From positions 15,387,720-15,451,719 of the forward strand of contig OY978530.1 of assembly GCA_963854835.1 (NCBI GenBank): DNA of 64,000 nt, in the 5' to 3' direction. The stretch's first letter is position 1. Each line of letters begins with the position of its first letter. A program made the position numbers and the translations under genes. The stretch comes from Megamerina dolium. Lineage: Eukaryota; Arthropoda; Insecta; Diptera; Megamerinidae. Shown here piece by piece: positions 7,632 through 61,925 of this stretch. The notes below the pieces were generated by a model, which saw nothing but the letters and a program-made list of their open reading frames with translations, did no database searches and was not told where the DNA came from.

Positions 7632-7633
7632 AT

Positions 7634-31568: not shown

Positions 31569-31693
31569 CGATACTTCCTGCTGTACCGATTCACTTCCTT
31601 GCGTTGCCTCTTCAGGACTGTCTGGAAATTGGGTATCTATGAGGATATCTAAAGTTTCGGCAGCCGATTCCGCGCAATTGCCATCGGCGCGCT

Positions 31694-32814: not shown

Positions 32815-32961
32815 GCGTTACTAATCTTAGTCATGCTTGAAATAACGCGTGATGTTATTATGAGGACGGAAGTAGAGGAATTCTGCAACCGAACAAATAA
32901 TTAACACACGATTTAAGGGACGAAAAGGGACCCATATAAGTGGTCTGATTCGGCTAATCCC

Positions 32962-33152
<191 letters not shown>

Positions 33153-37503: not shown

Positions 37504-37696
37504 TATTTAGCAACGTATGTTCCATTCACTTCTCTTGCATAGATTGATGCGAATTGAGTCTCTGTTGGATGATGAGCAGTATGTTGACGATCACTTGGTT
37601 GTATATTTTCCATTTCCAATGTCCAATGTCAAAAAGAGAGTGATGTGCGACTCCATGTTGTATGGTTTACTCTGATAAAAAGTATGAACCCGTTAT

Positions 37697-37896
37697 NNNN
37701 NNNNNNNNNNNNNNNNNNNNNNNNNNNNNNNNNNNNNNNNNNNNNNNNNNNNNNNNNNNNNNNNNNNNNNNNNNNNNNNNNNNNNNNNNNNNNNNNNNNN
37801 NNNNNNNNNNNNNNNNNNNNNNNNNNNNNNNNNNNNNNNNNNNNNNNNNNNNNNNNNNNNNNNNNNNNNNNNNNNNNNNNNNNNNNNNNNNNNNNN
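37697..37896. other. Assembly gap (200 N)
   Basis: A run of N of round length, hence probably a placeholder of unknown true size. It separates the right palindrome arm from the gypsy-type integrase. Confidence 1.
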
Positions 37897-38800: not shown

Positions 38801-40474
38801 AACCAGATACTTCACGGTACACATATTGGAGATTCATTTCTTTTGCCTATCAACAATTTGATTTGCAAAAGGTTTGGCACGCAGTAGCTACTTAACACTT
38901 CTTCGAAATTAAAGTAAATAGGAATAAATACAATATAAACTTATTAAATATGGAAAAAATCCAATAAATATAAATAATTACAAGAGACTAATGAGAACTC
39001 GAAAAATAAAATATATAAAATAAAATAAATAATATATGAAACCATAAACTTTAAGCTCTAGATCTAAAATATGTATATTAATAAAACAGAGGAGAAAATT
39101 ATGGATCTCTCTAAATGAAATCGTTGAGTACTATATCACATATAAAAGGGGTATACTTACACATAGACATGCCTGAGACATGTTTGAGAAGATCAAGAAT
39201 TGAATCGATGATCGTCAAAAACAAAACAAAAACAAAACAAAAACAAACAAAAATTCAAGATCAAGGACAGTGAAACACAAAATTTAGGCCAAGGTCACCT
39301 CTCAATGGAAAGCCTGAAAGCAAGTCATCTCTGTCGCACTTCATGTTAACATACATGCATAAGTTCAATGCACAGGACAATTGTGATATTACAACGAGCA
39401 GTAGTCAGTAGACACGTGGTGTTGCTGATGTAGTGTCGAATTTGTAAGATGTGAAAATTTAATTAAATACCAAAGAAACTAGTGAAAAGATAATAACGGA
39501 AATGGGTAAATTTACCTAAAGGTTAAAACGAGAAAAATAGAATAAAAAATACTATTTAAAGAAGTAAATTAGAATCTAAGATTAAAATTAATTGCAGTGA
39601 ATAGAAATAAAATAGAGTTAAGTGTAAGTAATTAGTGAAATCTGCATTCTAAACAATAAAGAAAAGTTTAATTAGTAAATATTGTAGTAAAGAGGTGCAA
39701 ACAAACCATCCTGTGCTACGTAAGTTGGTTTGCTCCTTTTTTTTAGAATATAGCGTTCACCCATTTGAAAGATCTTTCATCGTGGGAGCTACGCAACATC
39801 ACACAGTAAGTCATCGCTTTTCAATTATATTATATATATGTTGGTATTTCCTTTTTGCATGCAGAAATATGTATATTAGGTGTAAGAAAGAGGATTATAG
39901 GTTAGCAGAAAACATGTTGTGATATATACACTGTTCCTAAAGTAAAAACATATTGATAAAGTATACAGTGTTTATATACCTGCATACAATTGTTGCTACA
40001 TTTGGTTTGTATTCACACATGTAGCGAACTCATGAATATCTTTTGCACATATGCACTTATAAGAACAATGAAAATTTAAATACATGAATTTAGTTACCAT
40101 ATTTAATAATAGTGCGATAATTGTTAAAAAAAAATAAATAAATTCCATATCGTATATGATATTTAATAAATCGAAACGTAAATTTGTAAAAATGTTGGCT
40201 TAAGTAATTTTTTGTTTATTTTGACTTCGAGCACCTGGTCTTATTAGCAACCTGGCAATTAATTTCAGTCTAATATTATGGTCTGCTGAAATATAGCGTT
40301 TCAACCTCCTCCTTTGTGTTTGTTCTTTACATTTTGCACGCAAATAAAATGCTTACCCATTCTGCAATACGAATATAGGACGCAGGAACCTACCCCGATT
40401 GCCGACGAGCCAGGCCGAATTCCAGTGGGTGCAACCGCATCTTAACATACGAAAATATACACCTTGTATGCTAC
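38750..40474 (+). mobile_element. Long LTR of the Lys-PBS gypsy-type element, plus orientation
   Basis: Inverted partner of 8523-10238. It follows pol, so it is the 3' LTR. It contains CATATAAAAGGGG (39139-39151) as TATA box and aataaa motifs (39080, 39653). Its right end joins copia sequence near 40474, about 18 bp short of where the other copy reaches its PBS. Confidence 0.82.
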
Positions 40475-40650
40475 AAAGTATATATGTAAAGATAAACATT
40501 GTTAATCTTCAATACTCCTCTTCAACAACGTTTACTTGCTAATGTGATTCCCATAGACGTTGTACAAAAATTATGTTTGATTTTAGACAGCGATTTGGTT
40601 AAGACATCTGCTGGCATCTCGTTTGTTTGCATATATTTGATTTCCACAAA
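40475..40650 (-). pseudogene. Copia pol C-terminal end
   Basis: Minus strand 40521-40650 encodes VEIKYMQTNEMPADVLTKSL, the last block of copia RNase H (Y-x-x-T-x-x-M-x-A-D-x-L-T-K), and ends with TGA. A short purine tract (gaagaggag) and the beginning of a possible LTR follow up to 40475. The rest of the element is missing. Confidence 0.82.
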
Positions 40651-44351: not shown

Positions 44352-44400
<49 letters not shown>

Positions 44401-44722
44401 AATATGTGGCACTTAAAGCCCCGAAGGTCTCATTGGCCGAGCTTTTCTTCCATTACTGTTGTGAGTGTTAAATTTTGGACAGTATTAGAAGGGACCTACT
44501 TATTTTAGCCGGTTCCGAACGGCAGAACTCTTGTGACATCACTTTTTCTGAGCTTTGTCACAGAGTTCTTTTAGAAGCTTTTTCATTTAAAATTGTTACT
44601 GTCAAAAGAATAGCCAATTGCTTGCCGACAGGCATCAGCAATTGTTATCCATCACCCGGGGATTGAACCACGACCTGCAGATCAAAAGGCCAACACACTA
44701 ACCACTGAGCTACGGCACCCAC
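44352..44722 (-). mobile_element. tRNA-derived SINE, copy 6, with (TA)n tail
   Basis: On the minus strand it starts GTGGGTGCCGTAGCTCAGTG (44722 downward), contains GGTTCAATCCCCGGG as box B-like motif, and ends with gtgccacatatttatta and then (TA)n at 44352-44396. The alternating AT thus forms its tail. Confidence 0.92.
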
Positions 44723-44816
44723 TGTATATATAAAATGCTAATAAAAACGGAATATTTTTACTCAAATTTTAATTTTTAAAATCAAAGAAGTCAAAGTTAC
44801 TTATACAGTATATTTA

Positions 44817-44927
<111 letters not shown>

Positions 44928-45077
44928 ATCTACCATGTGTACAAGTTTAAATCCGCTGTTTGATCGACTGTGCATCCTATTTTTTTATGAGTTCGACACC
45001 TGTCCACATCAATTAGTAAACATCATCAGTGATTCAGTGATTTCAAACAACAACATACATTTTTCCTCGTATAATCA

Positions 45078-45894
45078 TGTCTAGTTTCGTGCCAGAAAAA
45101 GAGCATATGCGGGAAGCTCTACTTTTTTGCTTCAATTTGAAGAAATCTGCTGCTGAGTCACTTTGAATGCTTGTGGAGGCCTATGGTGACAGTGCGCTAT
45201 CGGAAACCACTTGCAGAGACTGGTTTCGTCGGTTCAGAGAAGGCCATTTTCACTTGAGTGACAAGTAGCGTGAAAATAGACCCAGAAAAGTTGAGGACCA
45301 TGATTTGCAGGCTCTTATGGATGAGGACGACACCCAATGGCAAAAACTGCTTGGCGAACAGTTAGGTGTTACTCAACAAGCCCTTTCCATACGTTTACAA
45401 GCCTTGGGGAAGGTTCAACAATTTGGAAAGTGGGTACCCCATGAATTAAACGATGGAGGCAGATGGAGCGATGCCAAAACACAAAAGTCTTCTCTAAGAC
45501 CAAATCGCTTTGGACGCAAGACGATGCTGTGCTTTTGGTGGGATCAGCAGGGTGTCATTTACTACGAGCTGTCGAAACCTGGTGAAACTGTCAATGCTCA
45601 CCGCTACCACCAACAACTAGTGAAATTGCGCCATGCTTTGGGAGAAAAAAGGCCTGAGAAGAGAAACATGAGAAACCGATTTTTATCCACGACAACGCCC
45701 CATCGCACACGTCAAAACTGGTCCAAAACTACTTGGACACACTCAATTGAGAGGTGCTACCTCATCCCGCTTATTGACGAGACCTGGCCCCTTCTGACTA
45801 TCACCTGTTTTCGTCGATGGGTCATGCGCTCGCCGAACAGCACTTTTATTCGTATGAAGACGTCGGAAAATGGCTTGAGGAATTCTTCTGGCAT
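45078..45894 (+). pseudogene. Mariner (mellifera-type) transposase, N-terminal and catalytic parts
   Basis: It starts at the ATG of 45078 ([20 protein letters not shown]). A TGA interrupts after SAAESL; then YGDSALSETTCRDWFRRFRE. Frame 45305 onward reads [20 protein letters not shown] and KWVPHELND, and then jumps to [20 protein letters not shown]: the segment with the first catalytic aspartate (usually VTGDEKW) is missing. In another frame [20 protein letters not shown] and [20 protein letters not shown] follow, with 34 residues between the second and third aspartates and two stops. Confidence 0.88.
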
Positions 45895-46380
<486 letters not shown>

Positions 46381-46456
46381 TCTTTTGGCATGGTATACAC
46401 AAATTGCCCGAGAGATGGGAAAAATGTATAGCTAGTGAGGGCAAATACTTTGAATA
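46381..46456 (+). pseudogene. Mariner transposase, C-terminal codons after the SINE
   Basis: Reads WHGIHKLPERWEKCIASEGK then YFE and a TAA, the usual end of mellifera-type mariner transposases. It continues EEFFW from the other side of the SINE. Confidence 0.9.
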
Positions 46457-46528
46457 AATGAATTTTTGGCTTTCTATGAAAAAAATGTGTTTTTTTTACC
46501 GAAAAACAGCGGATTTAAGCTTGAAAAC

Positions 46529-46915
<387 letters not shown>

Positions 46916-47782
46916 TCTTACTAACAATTCAATGTCGGCTGGTGTGTATGGGCTATAGTTTGATTGCTTGTACGTCCTTGTGCAGGTGGCTGAGTTGAGA
47001 GCTAATGAGAACAACTGGTTGAATTTTTCGAGTGCTGAGTCTACATCGTGTCCATTTCTTAATACAGTACTCAGAGGAAGATGTATTTTCTTTCTAACGC
47101 AATTGCCTTGGGGGCTTGGTGATTTTATAGATATTACCGTGGGTGAGTGGTCAGATGATAGATCATAATTACACTCTGTGGAGATATTTTCCATCTGCAA
47201 ATCTTTGGCGACTCCAAAGTCTATGAGATCGGGTATTTTCCTCTTGTCCGTCGGCCAATATGTCGGTTGACCATTTGAAATAACATCGTAGCCGTGGTTA
47301 GTGATAATTGAACATAGTCTTCTGCCTTTTGGAGTTATTAAGCGGGTGCCCCAGTGAGTGTGTTTGGCGTTGAAATCGCCAGCAACCAAGAATTTGCTAC
47401 CAAGACTTGAGAAAAATTCTTTATATTGCTGTTCGGTAATACTGTATCTTGGGGGACAGTATATCGCAGATATTACTAGCTTAGAGATGTATTCTTCCAA
47501 ACATATAGATGTTGCTTGCAAGTAGACACTACTGAAATCTTCGAGAACATGATGTTTTATTCTGCTTTTTATCAATATGGCAGTTCCTCCGCGTGCTTTA
47601 CCATGCGGATGATTTGTGGTGTACAGTTTGTAATATGGTATTCGGTAGGAATTTTTGTCAGTGAAATGGGTCTCAGATATCATCATTATGTCGATCTGGC
47701 TGGATTCAAGGAATTGAATTAGCTCCAAACGGTGCTGGCTTAAGCCGTTGGCGTTCCAGTGGCATATCTTGAGACGACTCAT
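46916..47782 (-). pseudogene. Jockey LINE ORF2: APE endonuclease domain, truncated before RT
   Basis: Minus-strand start [20 protein letters not shown]. The domain shows [11 protein letters not shown] (catalytic E), [59 protein letters not shown] and [13 protein letters not shown], all APE endonuclease motifs of Jockey-clade elements with catalytic residues intact. It ends after about 290 residues in (TA)n, so no reverse transcriptase follows here. A Jockey RT 3' part lies at 60395-61318. Confidence 0.93.
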
Positions 47783-47832
47783 GGTCTGGATAGCAATGTT
47801 TGGAGTAGCATCGATTGATTTTTCATAATTTC

Positions 47833-50394
47833 TTACATCATTGTTTGCATTGAGTTCATGAATTGGTTCATATTCTGAATTAATGTTTGAAGCAAATGTT
47901 CAAGGGTACTTGGCTGTTGGGTGGGCAGTGAGTGTTCCTGCTCATTATTTACATTGCTTTGTTGGTGTGGGTTTTGTTTTAACACGCTAGCGTATGAATT
48001 GGTTTGATTCTTGTTTGGGATTGCAGAGAAGAATTGTGTTGCATCAATATTTTGTCTCTTACTTGAGTTGGCTATCTGAGTTTGCTCAACTGGTTTTAGA
48101 GGTTGATTGCTAGCAGTTAGCTTTAGGGTTGTATATACTGGGCAACCTCTATAATTTGCGGTGTGATTACCTCCACAATTGCTGCATTTTTTCATGCTAG
48201 CATCGCCTTCAGATTTTGGGCATATGTTTGATTTATGGAGATCTCCACAAATCACACAAATAGCTGGAAGGGTACAATATGTCTTAGTATGTCCATATTC
48301 TTGGCAGTTACTGCACTGAGGAGGTCCAGTTCTCTTATGGGGTTCTTCGATTGTGATTTTGCGATGCAATAAATATCGAATTTTATATATGGGGTGTACT
48401 TCACCTTTTTTTTAGGGGTTTTGTTTCAGGCTGAAGCTCAATACGATATAACGGTTGAGGTATATTGCTCTTGTTGAGAATGTTGAATACTGTTTTGGCT
48501 TGAAACCCTTCTTCCTGAAGGGCAAGTTTGATTACGTTAATATCAACGTTGGGTTCGACGCCTTTGAGTACAACGATTACGCCCTCACTACTTTTTAGCT
48601 GATATGTATAGTAATTCTTTTTTACAGCATCAAATTCCGCGATTACTTTGCGATAATGAGTTTCGCTGTAGATTTGCACTTTCGTTTCCTCAATTTGGCC
48701 TTTGCGAATAGAAACAACGTGGAAATTCTTTGGTCCTATAAGACTTGTAATTCTAGAAATCAACTTATCTGAGTTGCGTTCTCCTAAGAAAATGGGTGGG
48801 GGTGTGAAATTTTTCTTTGAGATGATATTTTCGTCACTTTCATCACCTGAAAGCAGAGCGTATCTATTTTCCGAAATAATAGGGGTAGTGTTCTGCTTCT
48901 GAATTTTTGTTGAATTCATTTGTTTTGAATTTTGGGGACTTCTCTTTCGCTTTACTGCAGTAATGTAGCGATCAATTCCAGTTTGAACAGCAACTGGTTC
49001 TTTATTAGTCATCGCACTAGTTGCTTAAACTACTGGGTCATGCACTTCAGTAGAAAGGCCGTTATTTGTTTGCTTTGATGTTGTAGCTGTTGCTGTTACA
49101 GCAGGAGAAGCGCATTGTACACTCGACGGTATAGAGGGAGATAGTATATCACGAGAGAACAAATTATTTTTTTTGTCTGTATTTATTGTTGTTGCAAATT
49201 TTGATGTAGTGTTAGAGTGAGGAATATGTGCAGGCAAAAGATTTGCACTGTTACTTTCACAGCTGGCAGGGTACAATATGTCTTAGTATGTCCATATTCT
49301 TGGCAGTTACTGCACTGAGGAGGTCCAGTTCTCTTATGGGGTTCTTCGATTGTGATTTTGCGATGCAATAAATATCGAATTTTATATATGGGGTGTACTT
49401 CACCTTTTTTTAGGGGTTTTGTTTCAGGCTGCAGCTCAATACGATATAACGGTTGAGGTATACTGCTCTTGTTGATAATGTTGAATACTGTTTTGGCTTG
49501 AAACCCTTCTTCCTGAAGGGCAAGTTTGATTTCGTTAATGTCAACGTTGGGTTCGACGCCTTTGAGTACTACGATTAAGCCCTTACTACTTTTTAGCTGA
49601 TATGTGTAGTAATTCTTTTTTACAGCATCAAATTCCGCAATTACTTTGCGATAATGAGTTTCGCTGTAGATTTGCACTTTCGTTTCCTCAATTTGGCCTT
49701 TGCGAATAGGAACAACGTGGAAATTCTTTGGTCCTATAAGACTTATAATTCTAGAAATCGACTTATCTGAGTTGCGTTCTCTTAAGAAAATGGGTGGGGG
49801 TTTGAAATTTTTCTTGGAGATAATATTTTCGTCACTTTCATCACCTGAAAGCAAAGCGTATCTATTTTCCGAACTAATAGGGGCAGTGTTCTGCTTTTGA
49901 ATTTTTGTTGAATTCATTTGTTTTGAATTTTGTGGACTTCTTTTTCGCTTTACTACAGTAATGTAGCGATCAATTCCAGTTTGAACAGCAACTGGTTCTT
50001 TATTAGTCATAGCACTAATTTCTTTAACTACTGGGTCATGCACTTCAGTAGAAATGCCGTTATTTGTTTGCTTTGATGTTGTAGCTGTTGGTGTTACAGC
50101 AGGAGAAGCGCATTGTACACTCCACGGTATAGAGGGAGATAGTATATCACGAGAGAACAAATTATTTTTTTTGTCTGTATTTATTGTTGTTGCAAATTTT
50201 GATGTAGTGTTAGAGTGAGGAATATGTACAGGCAAAAGATTTACACTGTTACTTTCACTTGTGCAGTGTGTATCAACTGTTTTTTTTGATAATGCACTTA
50301 TCGGGGGGGTTTGCGCGGGTGATTGCAAATTATTGTTTACACACACATTAACAGGCGATTGCCGTTGCCGGGGAGGAGAGCGCTGAACACTCAT
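47833..50394 (-). pseudogene. Jockey LINE ORF1 (Gag-like), with internal tandem duplication
   Basis: The start MSVQRSPPRQRQSPVNVCVN lies at 50394. The first copy runs to KTYCTLPA at about 49263, where it is joined to an earlier point (CESNSANLLP...), so roughly 1 kb is repeated. The second copy has a stop after HDPVV and a frameshift in a T run near 48408. It then continues into 47833-48369 with three Cys/His knuckles: CSNCQEYGHTKTYC, CVICGDLHKSNIC and CSNCGGNHTANYRGC. ORF1 binds element RNA. The C-terminus is Gln/Asn-rich. Confidence 0.9.
48262..50257 (-). repeat. Tandem duplication (two units of about 1 kb) in ORF1
   Basis: Units 48262-49259 and 49260-50257 align along their length with scattered substitutions, such as K/E, S/P and A/T changes in the translations. 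The join lies at tactttca-cagctggcaggg. Confidence 0.85.
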
Positions 50395-50560
50395 ATTATA
50401 AACAAAATGTTTGCAAACGATATTATTATATTTATTTTTTTTTTTATAAAAAAAAAAAAATCACCGAAATAACTTCTTGAGTTTCTTAGCGTCTTTTCGC
50501 AAAATATTAAAAATTTTTTTTTTTTTTTTACCGAAAACAATCACTTTTCCGACTATCAAA

Positions 50561-50594
50561 CACGTCCACTCTTATTGGTGACTTTCACTTTTTT
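50561..50594 (-). promoter_or_regulatory. Jockey 5' end and internal DPE-type promoter element
   Basis: If the first base after the target-site copy (50594) is +1, GGACGTG lies at +28 to +34 (50567-50561). This is the position and form of the downstream promoter element of Drosophila Jockey-clade LINEs (RGWCGTG). It implies a full-length 5' end. Confidence 0.7.
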
Positions 50595-51613
50595 GCTAAT
50601 GTTATTATTTTTTTCAAATACCGAAACTTGATCAATCGGCATAGGGAACACTAATCCATCGAAATTTAATGTTTTACCGCTCACAGTAATTACATTATCC
50701 TGAACATTTATATTCAATCTGGTGCATCTTTGAATATTTCTTCCAGCTGATAATGCAGATATTATTGACCATTTAAAGCAGTACTCGTCATTGTTCCGAA
50801 CATTGATACAAGCATGCTTTTCAGTTAATTTCTGTGGTAATTTTATATATGACGATTCTCTCAGTGGTTTGTACTGATTTAAATTTATCTCCAATCCAAT
50901 CATCTTTATTAGAGTTCATCCACTATCTCGTTCTTGGAACTCTTCCATTTTTGCACATAAAGCATTGGCTTTATCGTTGTACATTGTTTCAATATCTTGC
51001 GGTTTTTGTAATAAGGTCATTTTTGTTTGAAATGACTTTATATCTATGCCAACAGCATCAAAATCAGGGTCATTGTCATCTCTATTATCATAGGGTTTGA
51101 ACTTTATGTATTCACAAAAAAGTTCAAAATTAAATTTATAGGAGTAGTTTCTCTCCAGTTGCTCACGCAATAATTTCATAATTTCCTCCTTTATCTTTTC
51201 CAAAAAAATATCCGGTAAGAGAATATTTTCATCATTTGTAAATGTAGCTCTGTACACGTGATTTAAACATTCCCTTTATCTGTTGAGTATGTCCATCCGA
51301 TGTTGAATTGTTTTCTATCTGTGGCAGAGTGGAATTTTTTTTATGATCATTAGCCCTCAAATGATATGGCCAACAATTGATCATCATTATGTTCTTTTTC
51401 AATTGATTTGCTGATGGATTGTGTATTATTAATATATTCATCTTTCTCATGATTTTTTTCAACATGATTTTTTAAATAACAATTCCTCATGAAACTTTTT
51501 GTACACTGGGTGCAATTGAACTTTCGACCCTCGTGTTTACTTAATACATGTCTTTTTCAATTTTTTTGAGTATTGAAACTCATTTCACAAATATTGCAAA
51601 TGAAACCTTTCAT
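50595..51613 (-). pseudogene. polB: Polinton/Maverick DNA polymerase, N-terminal part
   Basis: The start MKGFICNICEMSFNT at 51613 leads into two C2H2 zinc fingers (CNICEMSF...H, CTQCTKSFMRNCYLKNHVEK), interrupted by a TGA. After further stops or an unrecognised intron come YRATFTNDENILLPDIFLEK, EFQERDSGW and the block KHACINVRNNDEYCFKWSII followed by LNFDGLVFPMPID. This architecture (zinc finger, then CINxxNxDEYCFKW) is that of insect Polinton polymerase proteins. The reading stops at EKNNNIS, exactly where Jockey 5' sequence starts. The next part of the protein is found at 58730-60394. Confidence 0.85.
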
Positions 51614-51664
51614 ATTGATGCACGAAATTGGTTAGTTTGATGTGTAATGGGGAGTATGCAACTT

Positions 51665-51680
51665 TATACTACTTTTATAA
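51665..51680 (-). promoter_or_regulatory. Putative TATA box of the polymerase gene
   Basis: The minus strand reads cttataaaagtagtat about 55-65 bp upstream of the zinc-finger ATG. Confidence 0.4.
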
Positions 51681-52554
51681 GACTGTACCTCCAAACACTT
51701 TATCGTCATAATATAAACGGTTTATCAACAGGAAGTCCTTATCAGTAAAACCGCAATCGTTTCCTGTTTGAATTCTTTCTCACGCGCAATAATTGTGAAA
51801 TACATATATTTCTTATCAGTTGTATTTTCAGGATCTCTTACATGTTTTTGTCAACAGGAAGTTCTTATCAGTAGTATTTTCGAGATCATTCGTATATGTT
51901 ATCATTAAAAATTAAAAAGTTCATTCGAAAATATGGTGATATTTTAACCGAATCGCATTGGTTAAAAGTACAAAGTTTATTAAAACTAATATAAAATGTT
52001 CAAAAGGTTGGATTCATAGAATCGAAATCTGGAATTCATATTTCTAATTGTCCTTGGAGCAATGATGAGACAACTGTTGGACCTGACACTTGTGCCTGTT
52101 ATACCTTCGAAAAAAAATGCTTGGATATGTGCCCACAACTTCGGCAGCTCAAGTTGAAAAACCAACACCCACGCCTCGACATCAATCGGAAGTATCAGAC
52201 TTCAATGTACATATCTAGTACACCAGTATCTGCGTATCAATCTCCCTTACGCTTCATAACTGCAGAGTACATATCACTTTATCAGTGACATCGAAGAAAG
52301 AACTCAGTATTTCGAGCTGCGCTCAACTGGGGGAGAATGTTACAACAACAATAAAATTATTATTAAGTCAAATATCATTATAGCATATTGTTAACAACAA
52401 CAAACTTATTATCAACTCAAATATCATTATAGCATATTGTTAAATCACATTTTGCACGATAAGCATTAATCGATTCTACGTGCAAATGTTATTGAATTAA
52501 TTTAGTAAAATACTTATGTAAGAATTTTCCATAACTACAAAACATCCATTAACG
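51681..52554. other. Region upstream of the polymerase gene; no gene recognised
   Basis: It contains a repeated motif, caacaggaagtccttatcag, at about 51729 and 51855, and a 50-bp tandem duplication at 52342-52442 (shared aatatcattatagcatattg). Just before the duplication, actgggggagaa-TGTTAC resembles a polypurine tract plus LTR start. It should include the Polinton terminal repeat if one survives, but I could not identify it. Confidence 0.4.
52342..52442 (+). repeat. Tandem duplication, 2 x about 50 bp
   Basis: The two units, 52342-52393 and 52394-52442, share acaacaaca at the start and atcattatagcatattgtta at the end. Confidence 0.8.
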
Positions 52555-52860
52555 AGATATCCGAGCAGTTCCACATTCACCTTGCATGGGTGCCAGGGCA
52601 CAAAGACATATCAGGGAACGAAACCGTAAACGAGCTGGCAAAGAAGGATACAACGTTTTAAACTCTTTCTGATAAGGAGAGTATTGGCATTGCAATGGCG
52701 ACGTGTAACCTTCTCCTAGCCTCGGACGTATTACAGAAGACAAACAAAAGATGGGAGTTGCAACGTTCGTGTGCACCTACCCGATCAATCTGGCCGGCAC
52801 TAATTATAAAACAAAAGGACCGGCATAAGTGCAGAATACGGACTCAGAATGGGAAAAAAA
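52555..52860 (+). pseudogene. LINE RNase H fragment
   Basis: The frame reads FHLAWVPGHKDISGNETVNE then LAKKDTT and a stop, the last RNase H block (WVPGHxxIxGNExxxELA). Downstream is MATCNLLLASDVLQKTNKRW and RSIWPAL, the segment that follows RNase H in such LINEs. It is truncated on both sides and is unrelated to the Jockey copy, which lacks RNase H. Confidence 0.75.
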
Positions 52861-53129
52861 ATAAAAAATTGCCTCGGATAGAGCTTAGTTTTGTGAATAT
52901 AAAAAATATAAAATTTGTCTCCGCAAATGCCCATACAAGGCGTGGTTCTAGGTCAAAGTTCAAAATTGAGGTCGAGATTACTCGAGAGACAAGCAAGTTT
53001 TTTCTACAATATGTGTATCAAAACACAGGTTATTTTAATACCTTTTTATAGGTATATAATATTTTATATGAATTTTTAACTTTTTAAATGTTATGAAGAA
53101 AATTATAAATTGTTTATAAAAATTTTGTA

Positions 53130-53595
53130 AAAACCGATTTTTTTTCGAAAAAGTCCCCCATTAATCTATCTATATATTATTTCAAAGATCATAGGATTAC
53201 CTTTCCAATGGTATACAAAACATATTTTTAAAGAATTTTTATATATTTTAAATATATTTTTTTATGATCATACTTTCGCTATAGCAAATATGTGCACAGA
53301 GGAATAATGAGACAGTTATAATCATAGCGGTAGACATAGACAAAAGAATTAAGGAAAAATAGGATGAAATAGTATAATTAACTAATTCTTTTATTAATCT
53401 AGTAAAGACTACATTGTTAGAGCCCTATGTTGAACATTATCCTGATGGTGAATACAATATTGAAACCAATGAATAAAATTTCAATACTAAAAATTACAAA
53501 GAGATTTTAATGCTAAAACTTCTGTCGCGCCGAAGGCCGGCTATCAAAAAAGCTTTTGTCATAAAATACTGTTGGTCGCGAAGCCGGCGTCGGGC
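53130..53595 (+). repeat. Dispersed repeat, copy 2
   Basis: Shares tacctttccaatggta and, further on, ggccggctatcaaaaaagct to ggtcgcgaagccggcgtc with 12268-12535, in the same order and orientation. The first 30 codons of the long frame beginning at 53510 are this repeat, not LINE protein. Confidence 0.65.
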
Positions 53596-53599
53596 CTAT

Positions 53600-54630
53600 A
53601 AGGGTCTTGTTGAGGATTTGTGTTTTAGAGTTAATGAGGATCTTTGTTCTATTGGCGAGTGGGCGACTGTAAATTTGCTACAGTTGAACCCCTTGAAATC
53701 GAATGTTCTTCCAATTTCTAAAATATCTTACTCTTATGCTATTTCACCAATTTTTCTTAACGGAACCCAACTTGAATTTATGAGTAAGGTTAGGAATCTT
53801 GGTTTTATTATTAACTCTTCCCTTTCTTGTGAAGACCATATAAATAATGTGGTGAGGAAGTCGTACTCTGTTCTTCGTAACCTCAGAATGACTGCAGCAT
53901 TTGTGCCATGTGAAACTAAACGAAAATTAATTCTCCAATTGCTGATCCCTATTTTAACATATTCTGATGTTGTTTACAGTAAGATGGACTCCAGGTCCTT
54001 GCACAAATTACGTGTAACTTTCAATAATGCTGTTCGTTACATTTACGGTTTAAAAAAGTTTGATCAAGTCTCGGCCTATAGTGGAAAAATTCTTGGTGTT
54101 GATTTTTTCAATTATCTTGATGCTAGAAATTGCATCTTTTTATACAGACTTATCCACTCGCAGAGTCCAGCGTACTTGTATGAAAAGCTTCAATTCTGTA
54201 GGTCGGGTAGAGGCAGAAATCTTCTTATACCAAGTCTTAATTTCAAAAATTCTAGTAGGTTATTCTTCGTTAGTGCTGTTAGAATGTGGAATTCGCTTCC
54301 GGTACATATTAAAAATGCTGTTACTATGGCAAACTTTAAGCACCTAATTCTCCTACATTTCTCTAACAAAACTTAATTTTTTTTCTTTCTCTCTCTCTCT
54401 CTCTCTCTCTCTTTCACACTCACTTTCTTTTCTTTTCCCTTTTCTCGACAGCCCTATTTAGTTTTAAGCAATTACTTTATTCCTTTATTTTTTAAGCAAT
54501 TTGTTGTTAATATCATTGAAGTTGTTATTTCATGTTTACTCTGCGTATGTGAAAGATTATTATATCTTATATGTGAACTAAAATGAAAATAAATGAAATA
54601 AATGAAATGAAATATTAAAAATTATAGAAA
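53600..54630 (+). pseudogene. CR1-like LINE 3' end (RT C-terminus)
   Basis: Frame 53510-54376 from about 53600 reads LCFRVNEDLCSIGEWATVNL, LNPLKSNVLPIS, KVRNLGFIINSSLSCEDHIN, LIPILTYSDVVYSKM, AVRYIYGLKKFDQVSAYSGK and SAVRMWNSLPVHIKN, the RT thumb and tail of CR1/Jockey-type LINEs. The catalytic YADD lies upstream and is lost by 5' truncation. The 3' end carries (TC)n and closes with aaataaatgaaataaatgaa-type short repeats rather than poly(A), as in CR1 elements. Confidence 0.85.
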
Positions 54631-54828
54631 ACTTTTCAAATTAATATATCTTAAATATTGAAATGATTATTTATTTATTTTTTTGTATGTATAAATAAAG
54701 ATTCAAATTCTATTCAAATTTTTTTGAATAGCAATCAGAAATATATTGTTTTTTCTATTGTGATGATATAAAGCTTTAGTTATGAGCATGAGTTTGTGTA
54801 TTGTGTCGTTGTTTTGGTTAAGCTTATA

Positions 54829-55950
54829 AAGGGTTATCCATATATATATAGCGGTATCTCAGCCATAACGTGACGAATGTTGGTTTTTAGGTGCTCAAGA
54901 GTTAAAGGTTTATCTGCATAAACACGGTCTTTAGCGTAGCCCCACAAAAAAAAAACAAGCGGTGTCAAATCGCATGATCTTGGTAGCCACTTGATATCGC
55001 CACGACGAGAAATTACGCGGCCAGAAAATTTCTCTTGCAATAAAGCCATATTCGCTCGAGTTGTGTGGCATGTGGCACCGTCTTGTTGAAACCACATATT
55101 CTCTAAGTCGTATTCTTCAATAGCAGGCAAAAAAAAGTCGGTTATCATATGACCATAACGCTCCGAATTGACGGTGACAGTCGTTCCATCGTCGTTTTCG
55201 AAGAAGTAAGTTCCAATCACACCTCCGGACCAAAGAGCGCACCAAGCAGTGACTTTTTGTGGATGTAGTGGCCTCTCTTCAATTACTTGAGGATTCTCAG
55301 AACCCCAAATACGACAATTTTGTTTGTTAACATACCCACCGAGTGAGAAATGTGCTTCGTCGCTGAAGAAAATTTTGTTCGAAAAATCGCCGTCCACCGC
55401 CTGTTGTTCAAGCACCCATTCGACGTATCTACGACGTTGTGAATGGTCAGCTGGCTTCAGTTGTTGTGTGAGCTGGATTTTATATAGATGTAGGTGTAGA
55501 TCCAAATGCAAAATACACCATAATGTGCCGTAAGACACATCCTAATTCCTGAAAACGACGAGGAATCGACACATTCGGGTCTTCGGCAACACTTTCACTT
55601 ACAGCAGCGATATTTTCGGTGGTACGAGCGAAACGATGATGCACAGGCGTTACAATATCTGTAATCGATCCAGTCTCTTCATATTTCTTCACAATTTTGC
55701 CAATTGCTTACGTAGTTGGACGATTATGTAAACCATAATCTCCTCTTAAAGCACGATATGTGGCTGTGGCAGAATCACCATTTTTGTAGTAGGTTTTTAC
55801 AATTTTAATACGTTGTGCGATAGATAGGTGATCCATTTTCGCAAATGTCAGATTTTGAACTGAAAAAGAAAGAAATTGTTTTAACAACTCAGTTTGACAG
55901 ATGTCGAATTCTAGCCCTATACTTTTGAAACCGCGAAATGGATAACCCTT
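54829..55950 (-). mobile_element. rosa-like (DD41D) mariner-superfamily element with inverted ends
   Basis: The inverted ends AAGGGTTATCCAT (54829-54841) and ATGGATAACCCTT (55938-55950) are perfect over 13 bp and flanked by TA (54827-54828, 55951-55952). It splits a Polinton small gene on its right side. Confidence 0.92.
54834..55836 (-). pseudogene. DD41D transposase with a lost catalytic residue
   Basis: The start is MDHLSIAQRIKIVKTYYKNG at 55836. A TAA follows RPTT near 55709; then IGKIVKKYEETGSITDIVTP and a frameshift near 55540. Frame 54834-55538 has KIFFSDEAHFSLGGYVNKQN (first D), WFQQDGATCHTTRANMALLQ (second D) and RSCDLTPLVFFLWGYAKDRV. The third catalytic aspartate, expected 41 residues after the second, reads V. 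Length and layout otherwise match the rosa group. Confidence 0.9.
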
Positions 55951-55952
55951 TA

Positions 55953-56231
55953 CTATCTTTGTTGAATGATCGTTTAAAAACCTCTTTGATATCATCGTTG
56001 AACGAACGTTTCAAATATATTGAAGAGGATTTGGATAAAATATTCGAACACTTTAAAACTATTGAAAAATATATTGATGATAATATTTAGGAGCATATGA
56101 AGTATGTTTATGAGCACTTAAACATCGATGACGAGAATTTATCTGAGTCAGTCGATGAGGAAAATCAGAAGAACAATAGCGGTATCAATGAGCACATTGC
56201 TTTGAAAAACAATTATAATATGGAAAACTAA
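55953..56231 (+). pseudogene. Unidentified coiled-coil gene of the Polinton, 5' end cut by rosa
   Basis: The frame reads NDRLKTSLISSLNERFKYIE, EDLDKIFEHFKTIEKYIDDN, a TAG at 56088-56090, then EHMKYVYEHLNIDDENLSES to a stop at 56231. It is highly charged with a heptad-like pattern. It ends 8 bp before the integrase ATG, so it probably belongs to the Polinton. I do not recognise a family. Confidence 0.5.
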
Positions 56232-56239
56232 ATTACAAA

Positions 56240-57116
56240 ATGAGTTAAAGAGAACTTGTTACAGAGTTGGATAAACAAGATCGAAGAAATTTTCCACGTA
56301 GAAAAGTTATAACAAAAGGTATTGATGATCTTTGGCAAGATGATCTTCTTGAAATGGGTACTTACTCCACATACAACAAAGGTTTTCGCTTCTTACTCAC
56401 AGTTATAGATACATTTTCCAAATTTGCTTGGGGTACATCACTCAAAACAATAAATGCTCAGGATGTTGCTAAGGCGATGAAATCAATATTTGACAACGGA
56501 CGAATTACGAAAAATCTTCAAACTGATGATGGTAAAGAATTTTTCAACAAAGAATTTCAAAATTTGACGAAATTATATAATATCAATAATTATTCAACAT
56601 ATAGTACGTTGAAAGCATCAATTGGTTAACTCTTCAACAGAACGTTAAAAGGTATGATGTGGGAGGAGTTTAGTTATCATGGATCTTATAAATGGATTGA
56701 TAATTATCAAGATTTAATTGATGTATACAACAATAAAGTTCATCCCACCATTCAGATGAAACCCAACGAAGTATCTTCATTAAACGAGGAAAGAATTTTT
56801 AGTATTCTTACAATAGTTTAAAAATTTTCAACAAATCAAAATTTCACGCTAACGATACTGTACGCATAAGTAAATACAAAAACGTTTTTGAGAAAGGCTA
56901 TACACCAAATTGGACAACGGAAGTTTTCAAAATACATCGGATTCAAAATAATATAATTAAGGGAGGATTTTATGAATACGAACAATTGAATACCAATCAT
57001 TCTGATATGTATTTAGTAGAAAAAGTCTTAAAAGTTGAAGGTGAAAAAACTTTTGTTAAATGGTTAGGATTTTCAAATCAACATAATTCTTGGATCAGTA
57101 AAAGCCAAATATTATA
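56240..57116 (+). pseudogene. int: Polinton integrase with C-terminal chromodomain
   Basis: The ATG at 56240 is followed at once by a TAA, then RELVTELDKQDRRNFPRRKV, the N-terminus typical of Polinton integrases. The RNase H-fold core shows DLWQDDLLEMGTY (first D), LQTDDGKEFFNKEF (second D) and then SIG-stop-LFNRTLKGMMWEEF: the codon of the catalytic glutamate region reads TAA (56627-56629). A frameshift near 56810 leads to NDTVRISKYKNVFEKGYTPN and GGFYEYEQLN, and a chromodomain, VEKVLKVEGEKTFVKWLGFS. The chromodomain would guide integration to marked chromatin. Confidence 0.93.
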
Positions 57117-57136
57117 ACAAATAATAATTTCTATAT

Positions 57137-57718
57137 ATGAAAACAACAACTTATTTCATATTGGTGATCATATTTATTATAGAAATTCATATTGGTTCTT
57201 ATGAATTCGATGATATTGCTAATTTATTAACCGAAGATTATGTAATAAAAACTAATGATGATGCACATATTAAAATAAAAGCAAACAACAACACATTGCA
57301 AGCGGAAATATCCACCAGTCATGATGCTATTTACTTCGATAAGGAGAGGAGCATTGGACAAACGTTAGGTTTCTTAAGAAATGTTTTACAACCCGGTACG
57401 TTATACATATCAGATCAAACTCTATCGATAACGGGAAATAATGTGATATGCATTGAATGTGGTATTGTTAGCGGTTCATATGTAAATGAAAGAACAGCAC
57501 ACATATTACATCAATTTTTCATCAACGTTGAGCCTGGGTATAAAAAAGATGAGATCCCACAAAATCCCATTTATTTGGCGCTAAACACCAGAGAAATAAG
57601 TTCAATTACTGTCAAAATCGTTCATCAGGAAGGTCAACCATTAAATTTTAATGATAAAACAATCACATTAAGATTACATTTAAAGTCTCAAGAAGAACAA
57701 AATATAGAACTAAAATGA
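57137..57718 (+). CDS. Polinton minor capsid (penton-like, jelly-roll) protein
   Basis: An intact 193-residue frame starts 20 bp after integrase. After a hydrophobic N-terminus (residues 5-22) and an acidic stretch come IKIKANNNTLQAEISTSHDA, ERSIGQTLGFLRNVLQPGTL, VICIECGIVSGSYVNERTAH and ILHQFFINVEPGYK, then YLALNTREISSITVKIVHQE and a closing TITLRLHLK. This pattern matches the conserved Polinton protein predicted to be a jelly-roll minor capsid protein. It is the only Polinton frame here without a visible lesion. Assignment as penton rests on remembered family features. Confidence 0.7.
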   Translation: MKTTTYFILVIIFIIEIHIGSYEFDDIANLLTEDYVIKTNDDAHIKIKANNNTLQAEISTSHDAIYFDKERSIGQTLGFLRNVLQPGTLYISDQTLSITGNNVICIECGIVSGSYVNERTAHILHQFFINVEPGYKKDEIPQNPIYLALNTREISSITVKIVHQEGQPLNFNDKTITLRLHLKSQEEQNIELK

Positions 57719-57901
57719 TTACTTACAATAAAAATATGTTGAAAGAAAATTCCATCGTCAGTAGAACCAGTACGCTTGATGAATATAGTCCGAAAAATTA
57801 TCAAGCTCATCAAAAGAGTAAATTTTATAAAAGCTACCTACTGAAAATAGAGAGTGTTTAAGGTTGTTGGGTTTCAAACTAAAATAAAAAAATTTTGCAG
57901 G
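57719..57901 (+). other. Leader of the capsid gene, possible intron end
   Basis: A 48-codon frame starting at 57716 is too short to support. The sequence aaaaaaattttgcag directly before gATGAGTGAA looks like a 3' splice site, so the capsid gene may have an upstream exon or leader intron. Confidence 0.4.
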
Positions 57902-58192
57902 ATGAGTGAAATACTTAATGTTTTACAAAAACCAATTTACGATGAGAACATTACAGAGAAAGAATATCACAGTTATGTTCCATATTTACAAGCATTTAAC
58001 AACAGCGATGAAATCCGCATAACAATTCAAAACCAAGATCTTTACATTTTGCCCAGTGAGAGTTTGCTGTACATTGAGGAAAATGTAATTTTGAATGAGA
58101 ACACTGTTTCGCACAACATTAACTTTCAAAACAATTGCGTAGCTTATTTATTTGATGAAACTCGCTATTTAATCATGAATCGTATAAGAATT
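57902..58192 (+). pseudogene. Polinton major capsid protein, N-terminal fragment
   Basis: The ATG at 57902 gives MSEILNVLQKPIYDENITEK, then EYHSYVPYLQAFNNSDEIRI, TIQNQDLYILPSESLLYIEE and NNCVAYLFDETRYLIMN. This is the N-terminal 90-100 residues of the double jelly-roll major capsid protein of Polintons, whose full length is several hundred residues. Homology ends near 58190, where another gene fragment is joined. An ATG upstream at 57854 is in frame but precedes the likely splice site. Confidence 0.72.
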
Positions 58193-58580
58193 TCACTATT
58201 AAAGCACCATTTAGTTCTAAGCTGTTGGATAAAGAGCTGCAAAAACAAGTCTATTGGCTTACACATCATTATCATGGACTTCGATGGGGTGATGAGTCAA
58301 TTTCATTGAATGAAGTGAAAAATTATCTCCGTTTACATTTGAAAAATGCAAAAATATATATGTGAAAGGAAGAGAGAAAAAATAATGGTTGGAAGAAATT
58401 TTTAAATTTAAACAGATCTACGATTTGAATGAAATTATTTGTGATAATTTTAAGATAATGTATATGAAATATCCAATACATTCACCATGTACACCAGCAC
58501 CTTCATGTACTGTTAGCAATATACAAATCTGTGCTTTAAACAATGTACTAGTCCTAAGTAAATATGTTAATTTAGAGTAA
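58193..58580 (+). pseudogene. Unnamed protein fragment with VKG...KKxWL motif
   Basis: In a frame different from the capsid: IKAPFSSKLLDKELQKQVYW, LTHHYHGLRWGDESISLNEV, then after a frameshift IYVKGREKK, a stop, WLEEIFKFKQIYDLNEI and CTVSNIQICALNNVLVLSKY. The spacing of HGLxW, VKGxEKKxWL and CALNNV resembles an uncharacterised protein I associate with arthropod transposon-linked loci. I cannot name its function. It is fused directly to the capsid fragment. Confidence 0.5.
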
Positions 58581-58640
58581 AACAAAAGAACATTTCATCA
58601 ATAAAATAGAAAAATAAAATTTCAAATTAGTATAAATTTA

Positions 58641-58642
<2 letters not shown>

Positions 58643-58711
<69 letters not shown>

Positions 58712-58722
58712 ATATATATATT
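58643..58722. repeat. (TA)n tract
   Basis: Alternating AT between the plus-strand genes and the end of the polymerase on the minus strand. It truncates the polymerase C-terminus. Confidence 0.95.
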
Positions 58723-60175
58723 TTGTTGATTTTCCAATTGGTAAAATCATTATGATAATCGTGAATAGATGTAGGATAATCTTGATCAACTTCTAGAATA
58801 AATCCTACATCTGAAGTATTGCTTATTGAGAAAATATTGAAATCTGTAATGTTTTCAACCCACTCAAATCCACCATACGGTAAATACTCTGACATTGCCC
58901 AACCATACAGATATTCACATGGTTTAGTACAATCATACTCTGGTAGTTTTTTATTATTTGCTTTCGCATAGCGATTGCTACATTGAACAATAGCACCTCT
59001 TATTCCATTCTTTATGAAATTATACATGTTGATATCTTGAAAAAGATCTAATTCAATCATGGTGGTTTTTTAACATAGCATCCCAGGATAAACCTGGCGT
59101 AGTACGATTATGACAAGGATCCAATTGATAGATATCTTTACAAACTTTGCGCAAATTTTCAAATATATCTACCAGCAATAAAACATCTGTTTTCAAATAC
59201 AAGAGCATGTAGTCGAGCAAAGTTTTACATTTAAATGTAGTCCAAATACTTACAGCATGTTCATAATTAACAACAGAACACTCTGTATTATTTAAAGTGG
59301 AGAAGAATTGTTATCGAGGAGGAAGATTATTTTCCTTCAAAGGATCAACTGAATTTAAATATTCGTATGGAAATACTCCTTTACGTTTCAATAAGTTAAA
59401 TTCTATACTAGATGGATATGCTGACTTTAAAACATTAAAATCTTCGGTATTTAAATTTTTAGCTAAACTTTCCAAACCAGAGGACATTTCTTTGTTTAGA
59501 GGACTAATTTTACTATCACCGGGAAACGCACTAATTCTTTAACAAAAAGATGACAGTCATATCCCGAAAAATTTTGGAAGAAAATTGGAATGAACTTCGC
59601 AACTTGAAAATTCAAATGAGCGGCACCGCGATATTTTCCCGTTAAATGACAATGATCGAAAACTATCTTCATTCATTTCCTTCTCACAAATATGACATAT
59701 TCTTGCTGACGTACGTAGCTCTAATTCTTCTGGTGTGAGGGAGTTGATTGGTCTAACTATACTTAAATAATTTTTATAAATCATTTAACAATTACTTATA
59801 AATATTTTTGCACAATCTTCGCCCGAGTGAATTACAAATTTATCTAGACTTTGGTCGAAACTACACTTGATATAATACGAAAATGCTATCGGTCTATGAA
59901 TTTGAGTAGTTAACACATTATTAGACTCATTTACATTCACGTTCTCTAAAATACACTAAAAATCTGCATAGATAGCGAATGGAACATTAAGTTTAGACTT
60001 GAAAGAACGAAATTTTAACTTGTCGTTACCGTTTTCACCAGTGGGCATATTTGTTACCACTTTGTTGCACTCTTCTCGGTGTCTGCTCATAATATCATCA
60101 TTTCTGCTATATTGCAAACAGAAGTTACATAAGGAGATAGCACGCTCGTTGAGGATCAGCTGTGATCGTGCAAGT

Positions 60176-60242
60176 CTGTAAATAAGAATTAATGTATAAA
60201 ATATTTGAGACATACTTGATAGTTTAGGTGTGTTGATCTTAC
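60176..60242 (-). other. Putative 67-bp intron in the polymerase gene
   Basis: Starts GTAAGATC and ends TTATTTACAG on the minus strand. Removing it keeps the frame from KDIS to RLARSQ, where family proteins are continuous. The size is typical of fly introns. Confidence 0.75.
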
Positions 60243-60388
60243 CTTGAAATATCTTTAATCCAAACGTAGTGGAAATTGTCTTCTTGTTGAAGAAATAAGA
60301 GGTTTATGTGGATATTTTTCAACTCTTTGGTACTGTAATACGGTCCGACTATAGCATCACGATTTTCGGAACATCCAAATACATTAAC

Positions 60389-60394
60389 GCTAAT
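60389..60394. other. Target-site copy at the Jockey 3' junction
   Basis: gctaat (attagc on the minus strand) sits between the poly(A) of the Jockey 3' half and the polymerase codons. The same six bases lie at 50595-50600, between polymerase and the Jockey 5' end. Confidence 0.75.
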
Positions 60395-61318
60395 TTTTTT
60401 TTGTTTTTTTTTTCAAGCTTTATTTATTGGATCTTCCTAAAATTACTTAGAAACTAACAATAAGTAATCAAATCCTACAAACTAACTAAAATTATGTGAT
60501 ATTCCCAAAGTTCCATCACAATTTGTTGAGTTGCGAGGTATAGCAATTTCACAGCATATTCAGTGTGTCTTTTCTTTTTAATCGACGATGCCCCGTGCTT
60601 AGCAACAATTGCCTAGCAAGGGGATTCGGATGATTGTGTAATTTTTGAATGTAGCTTCTGCAGGACATTGCAACTTCCTCAGAAATTGTGGGTACATTTA
60701 AATCTCGATGGATGTTAAAGTTCCTCATATACCAAGGCGCGTTTACAATAATTCGCAGACACAATTGGATTGTATTCGCTGCAAATTTTCCATATTTGAG
60801 GGAGATGCGGTGCCCCAAAACTGAATAGCATAAGTCCAGATTAGCTTCAGGATTGCTTTATATAATAGCACTTTGTATTCGAGATTCAGCTTTGATCTTT
60901 TGTGTAACAGCCACCATAACTGATTCATTTTAAGATTGATCAGAGTTTTCTTTGACTCTATGTGATTTTTCCATGTCAGCCTTCTGTCGAGGTGAATACC
61001 CAAGTACTTTGTTGAGGAACATTGTGGAACTGATTTGTTATTTATTTTAAGTCGGAGACATGTATCTAGCCTTAGTGTGAAAATTACATGTACACTCTTT
61101 GATTCATTGACTTTTATGCACCAGTTTGCTAACCAGATTTCGAGAGAATCGAGATGAGTCTGCAGGAGTTTAGTAGCTTATATGGGGTTAAAGCGAGGGC
61201 ACAATATTGCCGATATCATCTGCAAAGGTCGATATGAATGTATAGTTATTGTTGAGCATATCTGAAGTATATAAGATATACAGTAAGAGCCCCAAAACGT
61301 TTCCTTGTGGAACGCCAA
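60395..61318 (-). pseudogene. Jockey LINE 3' half: RT C-terminus and poly(A)
   Basis: The minus strand begins with VGVPQGNVLGLLLYILYTSD and FISTFADDIGNI, the palm with catalytic FADD. Frameshifted sequence leads to frame 60743-61003 (YLGIHLDRRLTWKNHI-like GIHLDRRLTWKNHIESK, LYKAILKLIWTYAIQFWGTA) and to 60549-60818 (VNAPWYMRNFNIHRDL, SYIQKLHNHPNPLARQLL). A 3' untranslated region ends aataaagcttg followed by about 20 A with one C (60395-60413). The thumb and tail are Jockey-clade. The upstream RT half is missing at 61318. Confidence 0.88.
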
Positions 61319-61925
61319 CGGTTTATAATTGACATAAATGAAGAAAAGAGGGCAAACTCGGTTTTTGACAGTATGTCAAGATTGTGTGGGTGTCCTGAAA
61401 ATTCCAATTATGCAGTTTTGTTTTACTCGGCCAGACCTACAACCTCCACTGTAAGATTTCCCAGCTATTTCAGGCTCAATGTCAAAAGAATCCTAATTAT
61501 AAAAATGTATTTAAAAATGAATTTTAACTCAATTTGGTGTGCATGCACAGAATTCGTGTGCGTTGCTATATACACGAATTGCAGTGTAAATGCAAAGGGA
61601 TTAGAATTTCGTCATTGTGAGAATAGATGTGAGAAATAACATGGAGTTACCACGACAGTAGAGCAAGTAAAAAATTGGAATGGTGAGTTCTATTCAATGT
61701 TTTTTGTTTTACAAATTGTGCTTCTTCCTAACTTCAATATTTTAAAACATCTATTGCGTTCTGTATAATTGAGAGTGATTTAATTTTTTTTTGTAATTTA
61801 AATGTCTTTCGAAGTGTGTTTAATTGAAAGACACTTTTTAAGTATATAATTATAACGATTAATGTGTATACATATACACACTATGTTTTATATTATGCAC
61901 ATACGTAATTTTCTACACTTTTATG
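61319..61925. other. Region right of the permuted segment; no gene recognised
   Basis: A 110-codon frame at 61307-61639 shows no family features that I recognise and begins inside the Jockey fragment, so I do not call it a gene. Confidence 0.5.

What the first reader, a model, noticed from the sequence alone, without database searches (positions are those of the whole stretch)
46916..61318. Permuted Polinton: the two halves of an interrupted polymerase gene and of its Jockey insertion lie at opposite ends of a 14-kb segment
The minus-strand polymerase N-terminus (51613-50595) stops at codons for I-S and meets a full-length Jockey 5' end. The next part of the protein begins at 60394 with the same I-S codons, preceded by the poly(A) of a Jockey 3' half. 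Both junctions carry attagc, the expected target-site duplication of one Jockey insertion. For a minus-strand gene the N-terminus should be on the right, but it is on the left. A simple insertion cannot give this order. A circular molecule or tandem repeat opened inside the Jockey would. It suggests a Polinton that existed as a circle or a tandem array after the Jockey entered.
Basis: partly seen in the sequence, partly recalled or inferred. Interest (0 to 1): 0.92.

Follow-up and report, generated by a model that had tools for sequence, protein, structure and literature searches.

The report
Block-swapped Polinton split by a Jockey
A dead virus-like transposon (a Polinton) that had been hit by a Jockey retrotransposon lies in this insect-like DNA with its two blocks in swapped order, as if a ring had been cut open, but a host rearrangement or an assembly error would look the same.

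Summary
The polymerase N-part (ending at 50595, minus) and the next part (from 60394, minus) match two intact relatives; on P0122 they end at residue 277 and start at 276, a two-residue overlap equal to the 6-bp attagc duplication. Both Jockey pieces match the same Jockey ORF2 relatives: left residues 1-305, right 631-878 of P0004. For one minus-strand gene the order is wrong.

Corrections: the Jockey halves do not abut; about 975 bp (linker and first part of the reverse transcriptase) was not found in the window. The 5' half carries a 999-bp gag duplication. No Polinton piece searched occurs twice; no terminal-repeat junction was detected.

Block order B-A/D-C is a published mark of a circular DNA intermediate (PMC7450558), so a circle or equivalent block exchange of one dead copy is my first choice. 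Nothing shows that the Polinton itself made it. Assembly error is a strong rival: the left break is a 380-bp (TA)n array, and about 9 kb further left the scaffold has a gap next to an artefact-like palindrome centred on another (TA)n array. The window's own genome could not be searched (twelve requests unanswered).

The parts
46912..50594 (-). Jockey 5' part: 5' end, gag (with a 999-bp duplication), ORF2 endonuclease to about residue 305
   Evidence: Pfam PF03372 2e-19, PF14529 5e-18, PF07530; blastx to P0004 1-305, P0001 1-308; sequence read
48262..50258 (-). two direct copies of 999/998 bp of gag, 96.5% identical; 34 substitutions by codon position 10/12/12
46532..46911 (.). (TA)n array at which the Jockey 5' part ends; a mariner lies on its other side
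   Evidence: array; mariner PF01359 1.4e-21, ends read
50595..50600 (-). attagc, 5' copy of the Jockey target-site duplication
50595..51613 (-). Polinton polymerase N-terminal part (broken)
51670..51990 (.). sequence upstream of the polymerase with short direct repeats, perhaps close to the Polinton right end
   Evidence: repeats; the assignment is inferred
51990..54617 (+). inner joint: fragments of other elements (LTR-like fragment, RNase H piece, 3' end of another LINE)
   Evidence: PF00075 0.0014, below cut-off; ORF 53477-54373 without Pfam match; 53123-53298 matches 12226-12405 at 72%; LTR and LINE named by eye
54827..55952 (-). mariner-like element nested left of the integrase, TA duplication
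   Evidence: inverted ends printed; ORF 54837-55541 without Pfam match; named by eye
56249..57117 (+). Polinton integrase (rve 56249-56626) and chromodomain end (56803-57114)
   Evidence: PF00665 3.7e-12; PF00385 0.002, below its cut-off
57128..57718 (+). Polinton minor-capsid-like ORF
   Evidence: no Pfam match; named from position in the Maverick map (PMC8097293) and from recall
57851..58309 (+). N-part of a major-capsid-like ORF
   Evidence: no Pfam match; named from position and recall
58641..58721 (.). (TA)n array where the middle of the Polinton is missing
   Evidence: missing genes inferred from the map in PMC8097293
58743..60394 (-). Polinton polymerase, part after the Jockey site (frameshifts and stops), 67-bp GT-AG intron-like gap at 60176-60242
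   Evidence: blastx to P0121 253-831 and P0122 276-936 in several frames; intron ends; PF03175 0.0063, below cut-off
60389..60394 (-). attagc, 3' copy of the Jockey target-site duplication
60395..61319 (-). Jockey 3' part: ORF2 from about residue 631 to near its end, 3' UTR and A-rich tail; two frameshifts
   Evidence: blastx to P0004 631-878, P0001 634-881 in three frame pieces; PF00078 0.0041, below cut-off

Best explanation
One Polinton took one Jockey insertion in its polymerase gene (shown). This left a dead locus in the order integrase ... polymerase C-part, Jockey, polymerase N-part (inferred from the gene and from the published Maverick map). Later the stretch was rearranged as a block exchange, most simply by excision or copying as a circle closed between the two outer sides of the Polinton and opened inside the Jockey with loss of about 1 kb, then joined to other DNA by end joining or template switching (inferred). 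The process is host DNA repair acting on transposon-rich DNA; the Polinton's own replication is not needed.
For: Single-gene continuity with a two-residue overlap at the attagc site on P0122. Same Jockey relatives for both halves, non-overlapping. None of nine Polinton pieces has a second match better than E 0.3 in the window, and the self-comparison shows no repeat in the Polinton or Jockey parts except the gag duplication (E 1e-8). If two full copies had each been cut at random, both cuts in the Jockey without overlap and with a gap of at most 1 kb is expected in 0.9% of cases, against 21% for one break in the Jockey (simple uniform model, Polinton 16.9 kb from PMC8097293, Jockey 4.58 kb). 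The order change A-B/C-D to B-A/D-C is a published sign of a circular intermediate, with most breakpoints in interspersed repeats (PMC7450558, abstract and passages).
Against: The opening point lost about 975 bp, against 1-27 bp gains or losses in the resolved cases of PMC7450558. The inner closing joint is not resolved: about 2.6 kb of other fragments, no inverted-repeat junction detected. The left break is a (TA)n array in an assembly that looks unreliable at another (TA)n array. The same-family test of the Jockey halves is weak. Several local breaks could give the same order.
Confidence: 0.42

Rival explanations
1. Assembly error: the true locus is collinear (integrase ... polymerase C-part, Jockey, N-part), and the assembler broke it in the repeated Jockey and joined the pieces wrongly at (TA)n or transposon copies.
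For: The left break is a 380-bp (TA)n array. A 9.3-kb palindrome (28404-37696) centred on (TA)n 32965-33149 ends exactly at a 200-N gap; outside the array its arms differ by 8 gap events and 1 substitution (my count), against 2 and 38 in two other repeat pairs (Fisher p 9e-7), the pattern of consensus errors. The Jockey middle, probably multi-copy in the genome (not tested), is what is missing.
Against: No N between 37897 and 64000. At least two or three wrong joins within 14 kb are needed. The right break (61319) and the inner joint are not at (TA)n arrays. The left (TA)n array is split by a mariner with array on both sides, so the array itself is probably real. The palindrome lies in the other contig.
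Confidence: 0.33
2. Two Polinton copies carrying the same Jockey (tandem duplication, or neighbouring insertions of a Jockey-bearing Polinton), each later cut inside its Jockey.
For: Gives the same order without a circle; transposons are dense here; the Jockey has a tandem duplication of its own, so duplications occur.
Against: No second copy of the Polinton pieces searched and no repeat of the Jockey except the gag duplication; the missing Jockey middle was not found in the window. Two independent cuts must fall in the same 1 kb (0.9%). The Pfam flank scans also show no RT, but one search covered the known Jockey end at 61000-61319 and did not list it, so those two scans are not sensitive.
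Confidence: 0.15
3. The Polinton itself formed a circle or concatemer by joining its ends during replication after the Jockey entered.
For: The order fits; polymerase upstream sequence and integrase upstream sequence lie only about 3 kb apart.
Against: No joined terminal repeats detected. The Jockey breaks the element's own polymerase. An 11-bp repeat that would frame the 2.7-kb joint as one insertion is not significant (p 0.10).
Confidence: 0.07
4. Coincidence: two unrelated Polinton fragments and two unrelated Jockey insertions.
For: Polintons and Jockeys are both common in insect genomes (recalled). The Jockey same-family test does not exclude a mismatch (30% of mismatched pairs reach rho 0.56).
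Against: Six-base match with probability 0.0005-0.0017 exactly where the protein breaks, with a two-residue overlap on an independent relative.
Confidence: 0.01

Closest known systems
Segmental duplications through circular DNA intermediates (human cases in PMC7450558, abstract and passages seen; the cattle colour-sidedness case is cited there, its paper not seen)
   Same: Block order changed from A-B/C-D to B-A/D-C, most breakpoints in interspersed repeats
   Different: Here about 14 kb, inside one transposon; the donor locus is unknown, the closing joint unresolved, and about 1 kb lost at the opening point
Polinton/Maverick elements (PMC8097293: passages and section 7; PMC4028283: passages)
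   Same: Integrase and polymerase at opposite ends on opposite strands pointing inward; degraded copies without discernible terminal repeats are common
   Different: Polymerase N-part lies beyond the integrase; Jockey in the polymerase; 67-bp intron-like gap, whereas intact vertebrate Mavericks are described with intronless ORFs
Jockey-clade LINEs (120 listed ORF2 relatives of 880)
   Same: Gag with PRE_C2HC, endonuclease, RT, A-rich tail, short target-site duplication
   Different: Split in two with the middle missing; gag part duplicated

Membership tests
Polinton/Maverick | RVE integrase with chromodomain | tested here: met
   PF00665 3.7e-12, above cut-off; PF00385 0.002, below cut-off
[quoted passage not shown]
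   Both parts align to P0121/P0122. PF03175 0.0063 on one window piece, below cut-off, and not listed for P0121/P0122 at E 0.01; these show endonuclease VII matches (Pfam 0.0013 and 0.004, below cut-off; PHROG 3e-6 and 0.004). PDB: no match for P0122, two at E 0.28 and 0.93 for P0121. DTDS and NSVFGK stretches in these relatives are read by eye and known as B-polymerase motifs from recall.
Polinton/Maverick | polymerase and integrase modules on opposite strands facing inward | tested here: met
   Integrase + and polymerase - against PMC8097293 section 7; true for the C-part, the N-part is displaced
[quoted passage not shown]
   No inverted-repeat pair found; PMC8097293 reports 2,166 elements without discernible repeats, so I call this a degraded relic, not an intact member
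Polinton/Maverick | ATPase, protease and capsid genes | tested here: inconclusive
   Two capsid-like ORFs without Pfam match; ATPase and protease not noticed among the ORFs and not searched for specifically; probably deleted at 58641-58721
Jockey-clade LINE | endonuclease plus reverse transcriptase ORF2 | tested here: met
   PF03372, PF14529; relatives over both parts, themselves with PF00078; no tree was built, the clade name rests on recall and on one relative named X-element (P0074)
Jockey-clade LINE | one insertion flanked by a target-site duplication | tested here: met
   attagc on both junctions
Circular-intermediate rearrangement | block order B-A/D-C | tested here: met
Circular-intermediate rearrangement | resolved closing joint and opening point against the donor locus | not testable with these tools
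   The genome search gave no answer in twelve calls
Tandem array | a second copy next to the first | tested here: not met
   No second copy of nine Polinton pieces or of the Jockey middle in the 64-kb window; beyond the window unknown

The most novel reading that the evidence does not exclude
A Polinton episome with its ends joined persisted in the germ line after a Jockey had entered it, and was later opened inside that Jockey and fixed in the chromosome: a fossil of a circular Polinton form.
Probability: 0.07. Interest if true: 0.75.

Novelty: new member of a known kind. Interest (0 to 1): 0.4.

Why it matters
A retrotransposon insertion inside a conserved gene acts as a ruler: its target duplication and the interrupted reading frame show the original order to the base. 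If reads confirm the locus, this is a small, well-marked case of circle-type block exchange in an insect-like genome, and a way to look for more. If they do not, it is a caution about reading transposon biology from single contigs with (TA)n arrays.

Tried and rejected
Rejected: chance match of attagc; unrelated Jockeys (weak test); a 5'-truncated separate Jockey at 60395-61319, because no attagc adjoins 61319; a 3'-transduction origin of the right part, because integrase and capsid-like ORFs continue beside it; a framing 11-bp duplication around the inner joint (p 0.10); the idea that (TA)n arrays in general are tails of the SINE-like repeat (2 of 7 copies adjoin one). Maverick end motifs from PMC8097293 in 51.6-54.8 kb: AGTAGT once, ACTACT once, AGAGAG none, CTCTCT ten overlapping times in one CT run; not compared with expectation, not used.

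Led nowhere: six scans of viral contigs: five gave no relative; one search gave two loci, and tblastn of nine window pieces against the stored locus file found nothing better than E 0.05. Homologue search with a polymerase C-part piece: 16 candidates, none scored. PDB searches with P0121 and P0122. ARAGORN: no tRNA. Paper searches on Polinton circles or tandem copies: 11 of 11 papers listed, 20 of 139, 2 of 2, 20 of 37; no title or abstract start there names a permuted Polinton, the unlisted papers were not seen. Searches on assembly artefacts: listings only. led to PMC7450558 (abstract and passages). Passages only: PMC10680173 and PMC4028283; passages and section 7: PMC8097293.
Full report
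What was claimed and checked. I tested sequence, family and order separately.

Junctions. On the minus strand the N-part of the polymerase ends at ATTAGC (50600-50595) and is followed by a Jockey 5' end. A GGACGTG stretch lies about 28-34 bases after the first base, where Jockey-type LINEs carry a downstream promoter element (recalled, not tested). The A-rich Jockey tail is followed by ATTAGC at 60394. Two random junctions share six bases with probability 0.00045, or 0.0017 if one boundary may slide by up to three bases.

The gene. A homologue search with the last 107 residues of the N-part gave 2 proteins of 37 candidates, P0121 (1190 aa) and P0122 (1292 aa). A search with a C-part piece had scored none of 16 candidates, yet both proteins also align to the C-part: the N-part runs to residue 277 of P0122 at window 50595, and the C-part starts at residue 276 at window 60394. 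On P0121 the alignments stop at 248 (window 50604) and start at 253 (window 60388), consistent to within one residue. So intact relatives run through the site, with an overlap on P0122 equal to the six duplicated bases. The polymerase name rests on these alignments, on a PF03175 match below cut-off and on motifs known from recall; P0121 and P0122 give endonuclease VII matches in Pfam (below cut-off) and PHROGs. The integrase is firm (PF00665, 3.7e-12).

The Jockey. The endonuclease piece found 880 relatives, 120 listed. The left part covers residues 1-305 of P0004 and the right part 631-878. P0001, P0002, P0004, P0005 and P0007 are in the top ten of both halves by summed blastx score, with rank correlation 0.40 over 119 of 120 proteins; all were chosen by the left half. 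Split-half calibration on 115 of the 120 (860-910 aa) gives rho 0.56 for the window, within the range of one protein (mean 0.67, 5th percentile 0.42) but also reached by 30% of mismatched pairs. The same family is therefore likely, not proved. Residues 306-630, about 975 bp, are missing: tblastn with that stretch of 7 relatives found only short matches or 24-37% identity to other LINEs of the window. The right part has two frameshifts, the left ORF2 part none; numbers are too small to argue different ages.

The gag duplication. 48262-49260 and 49261-50258 are direct copies with 34 substitutions and one gap. Substitutions fall 10/12/12 on codon positions; 13 of 34 are synonymous against 25% expected (p 0.07). 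This looks mostly like decay after the duplication, so the Jockey is not recent.

Order. Intact vertebrate Mavericks generally have a polymerase module and an integrase module on opposite strands, both pointing inward (PMC8097293 section 7, which also names exceptions in two frog and toad species). The window shows integrase, chromodomain, two capsid-like ORFs, a (TA)n array where the middle is lost, then the polymerase C-part facing inward. The N-part should follow on the right beyond the Jockey; it lies on the left, beyond the integrase. The displacement itself needs no map: it follows from one gene on one strand. This is B-A/D-C order.

Surroundings. Left of the Jockey 5' part lies a 380-bp (TA)n array, then a mariner (PF01359) with a SINE-like repeat inside it and (TA)n again on its other side. 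Nine Polinton pieces matched only themselves in the window, apart from three short matches at E 0.32-0.50. Pfam scans of 41.9-46.5 and 61-64 kb list no RT, but one search also failed to list the Jockey end known at 61000-61319, so these scans are not sensitive. The inner joint contains an RNase H piece below cut-off, another LINE 3' end named by eye, a stretch repeated at 12226-12405 (72%), and no inverted-repeat pair.

Assembly quality. The window has one 200-N gap, 37697-37896. The 9.3 kb before it form a palindrome centred on (TA)n 32965-33149. Outside the array the arms differ by eight gap events and one substitution, counted by me; two other repeat pairs differ by 38 substitutions and two gap events (p 9e-7). 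Biological divergence gives mostly substitutions, so I read the second arm as a poorly polished fold-back copy. This lies in the neighbouring contig, but it warns about (TA)n arrays in this assembly.

Explanations. A circle opened in the Jockey, or an equivalent block exchange of one copy, explains why nothing but the gag stretch is duplicated and why both ends lie in the same element. In a simple uniform model two independent truncations do this in 0.9% of cases. The same flip is described for human duplications through circular intermediates (PMC7450558); there the losses were 1-27 bp in resolved cases, here about 975 bp. Misassembly remains at about one third. A Polinton-made circle needs joined ends, which I do not see.

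Limits. The window's own genome could not be searched: the request was unanswered in twelve calls. No reads and no sister species were available. The host is not identified; insect-like is judged from the transposon families (recall), one listed relative (P0074) being named as from Bactrocera dorsalis.

Noticed in passing
28404-37696: 9.3-kb palindrome centred on a (TA)n array and ending at a 200-N gap; outside the array the arms differ almost only by indels, which suggests a fold-back artefact.
   Followed up: yes
60176-60242 (minus): 67-bp GT-AG intron-like gap in the Polinton polymerase, at a place where the relatives P0121 and P0122 run on.
   Followed up: partly
48262-50258: 999-bp direct duplication of Jockey gag, 3.5% diverged, with mostly neutral-looking substitutions.
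   Followed up: yes
44809-46911: A mariner inserted in a (TA)n array, itself carrying a SINE-like repeat with a (TA)n tail.
   Followed up: partly
12619-12923, 15812-16165, 17665-17983, 22182-22550, 24304-24496, 44397-44741, 46070-46378: Seven copies of a short repeat with tRNA-like A and B boxes by eye, probably a SINE; two of seven adjoin a (TA)n array, and ARAGORN calls no tRNA.
   Followed up: partly
58641-58721: The Polinton's middle (capsid end, other genes, polymerase end) is missing at a (TA)n array, like the left Jockey break.
   Followed up: partly
8521-10250 and 38745-40475: Inverted pair of 1.7 kb, 99.7% identical, on both sides of the scaffold gap; probably a young repeat.
   Followed up: partly
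7202-8254 (minus): A second, more distant Jockey-like fragment (gag and endonuclease) next to repeats shared with the window's left end, probably LTR pieces of a Gypsy-like element.
   Followed up: no
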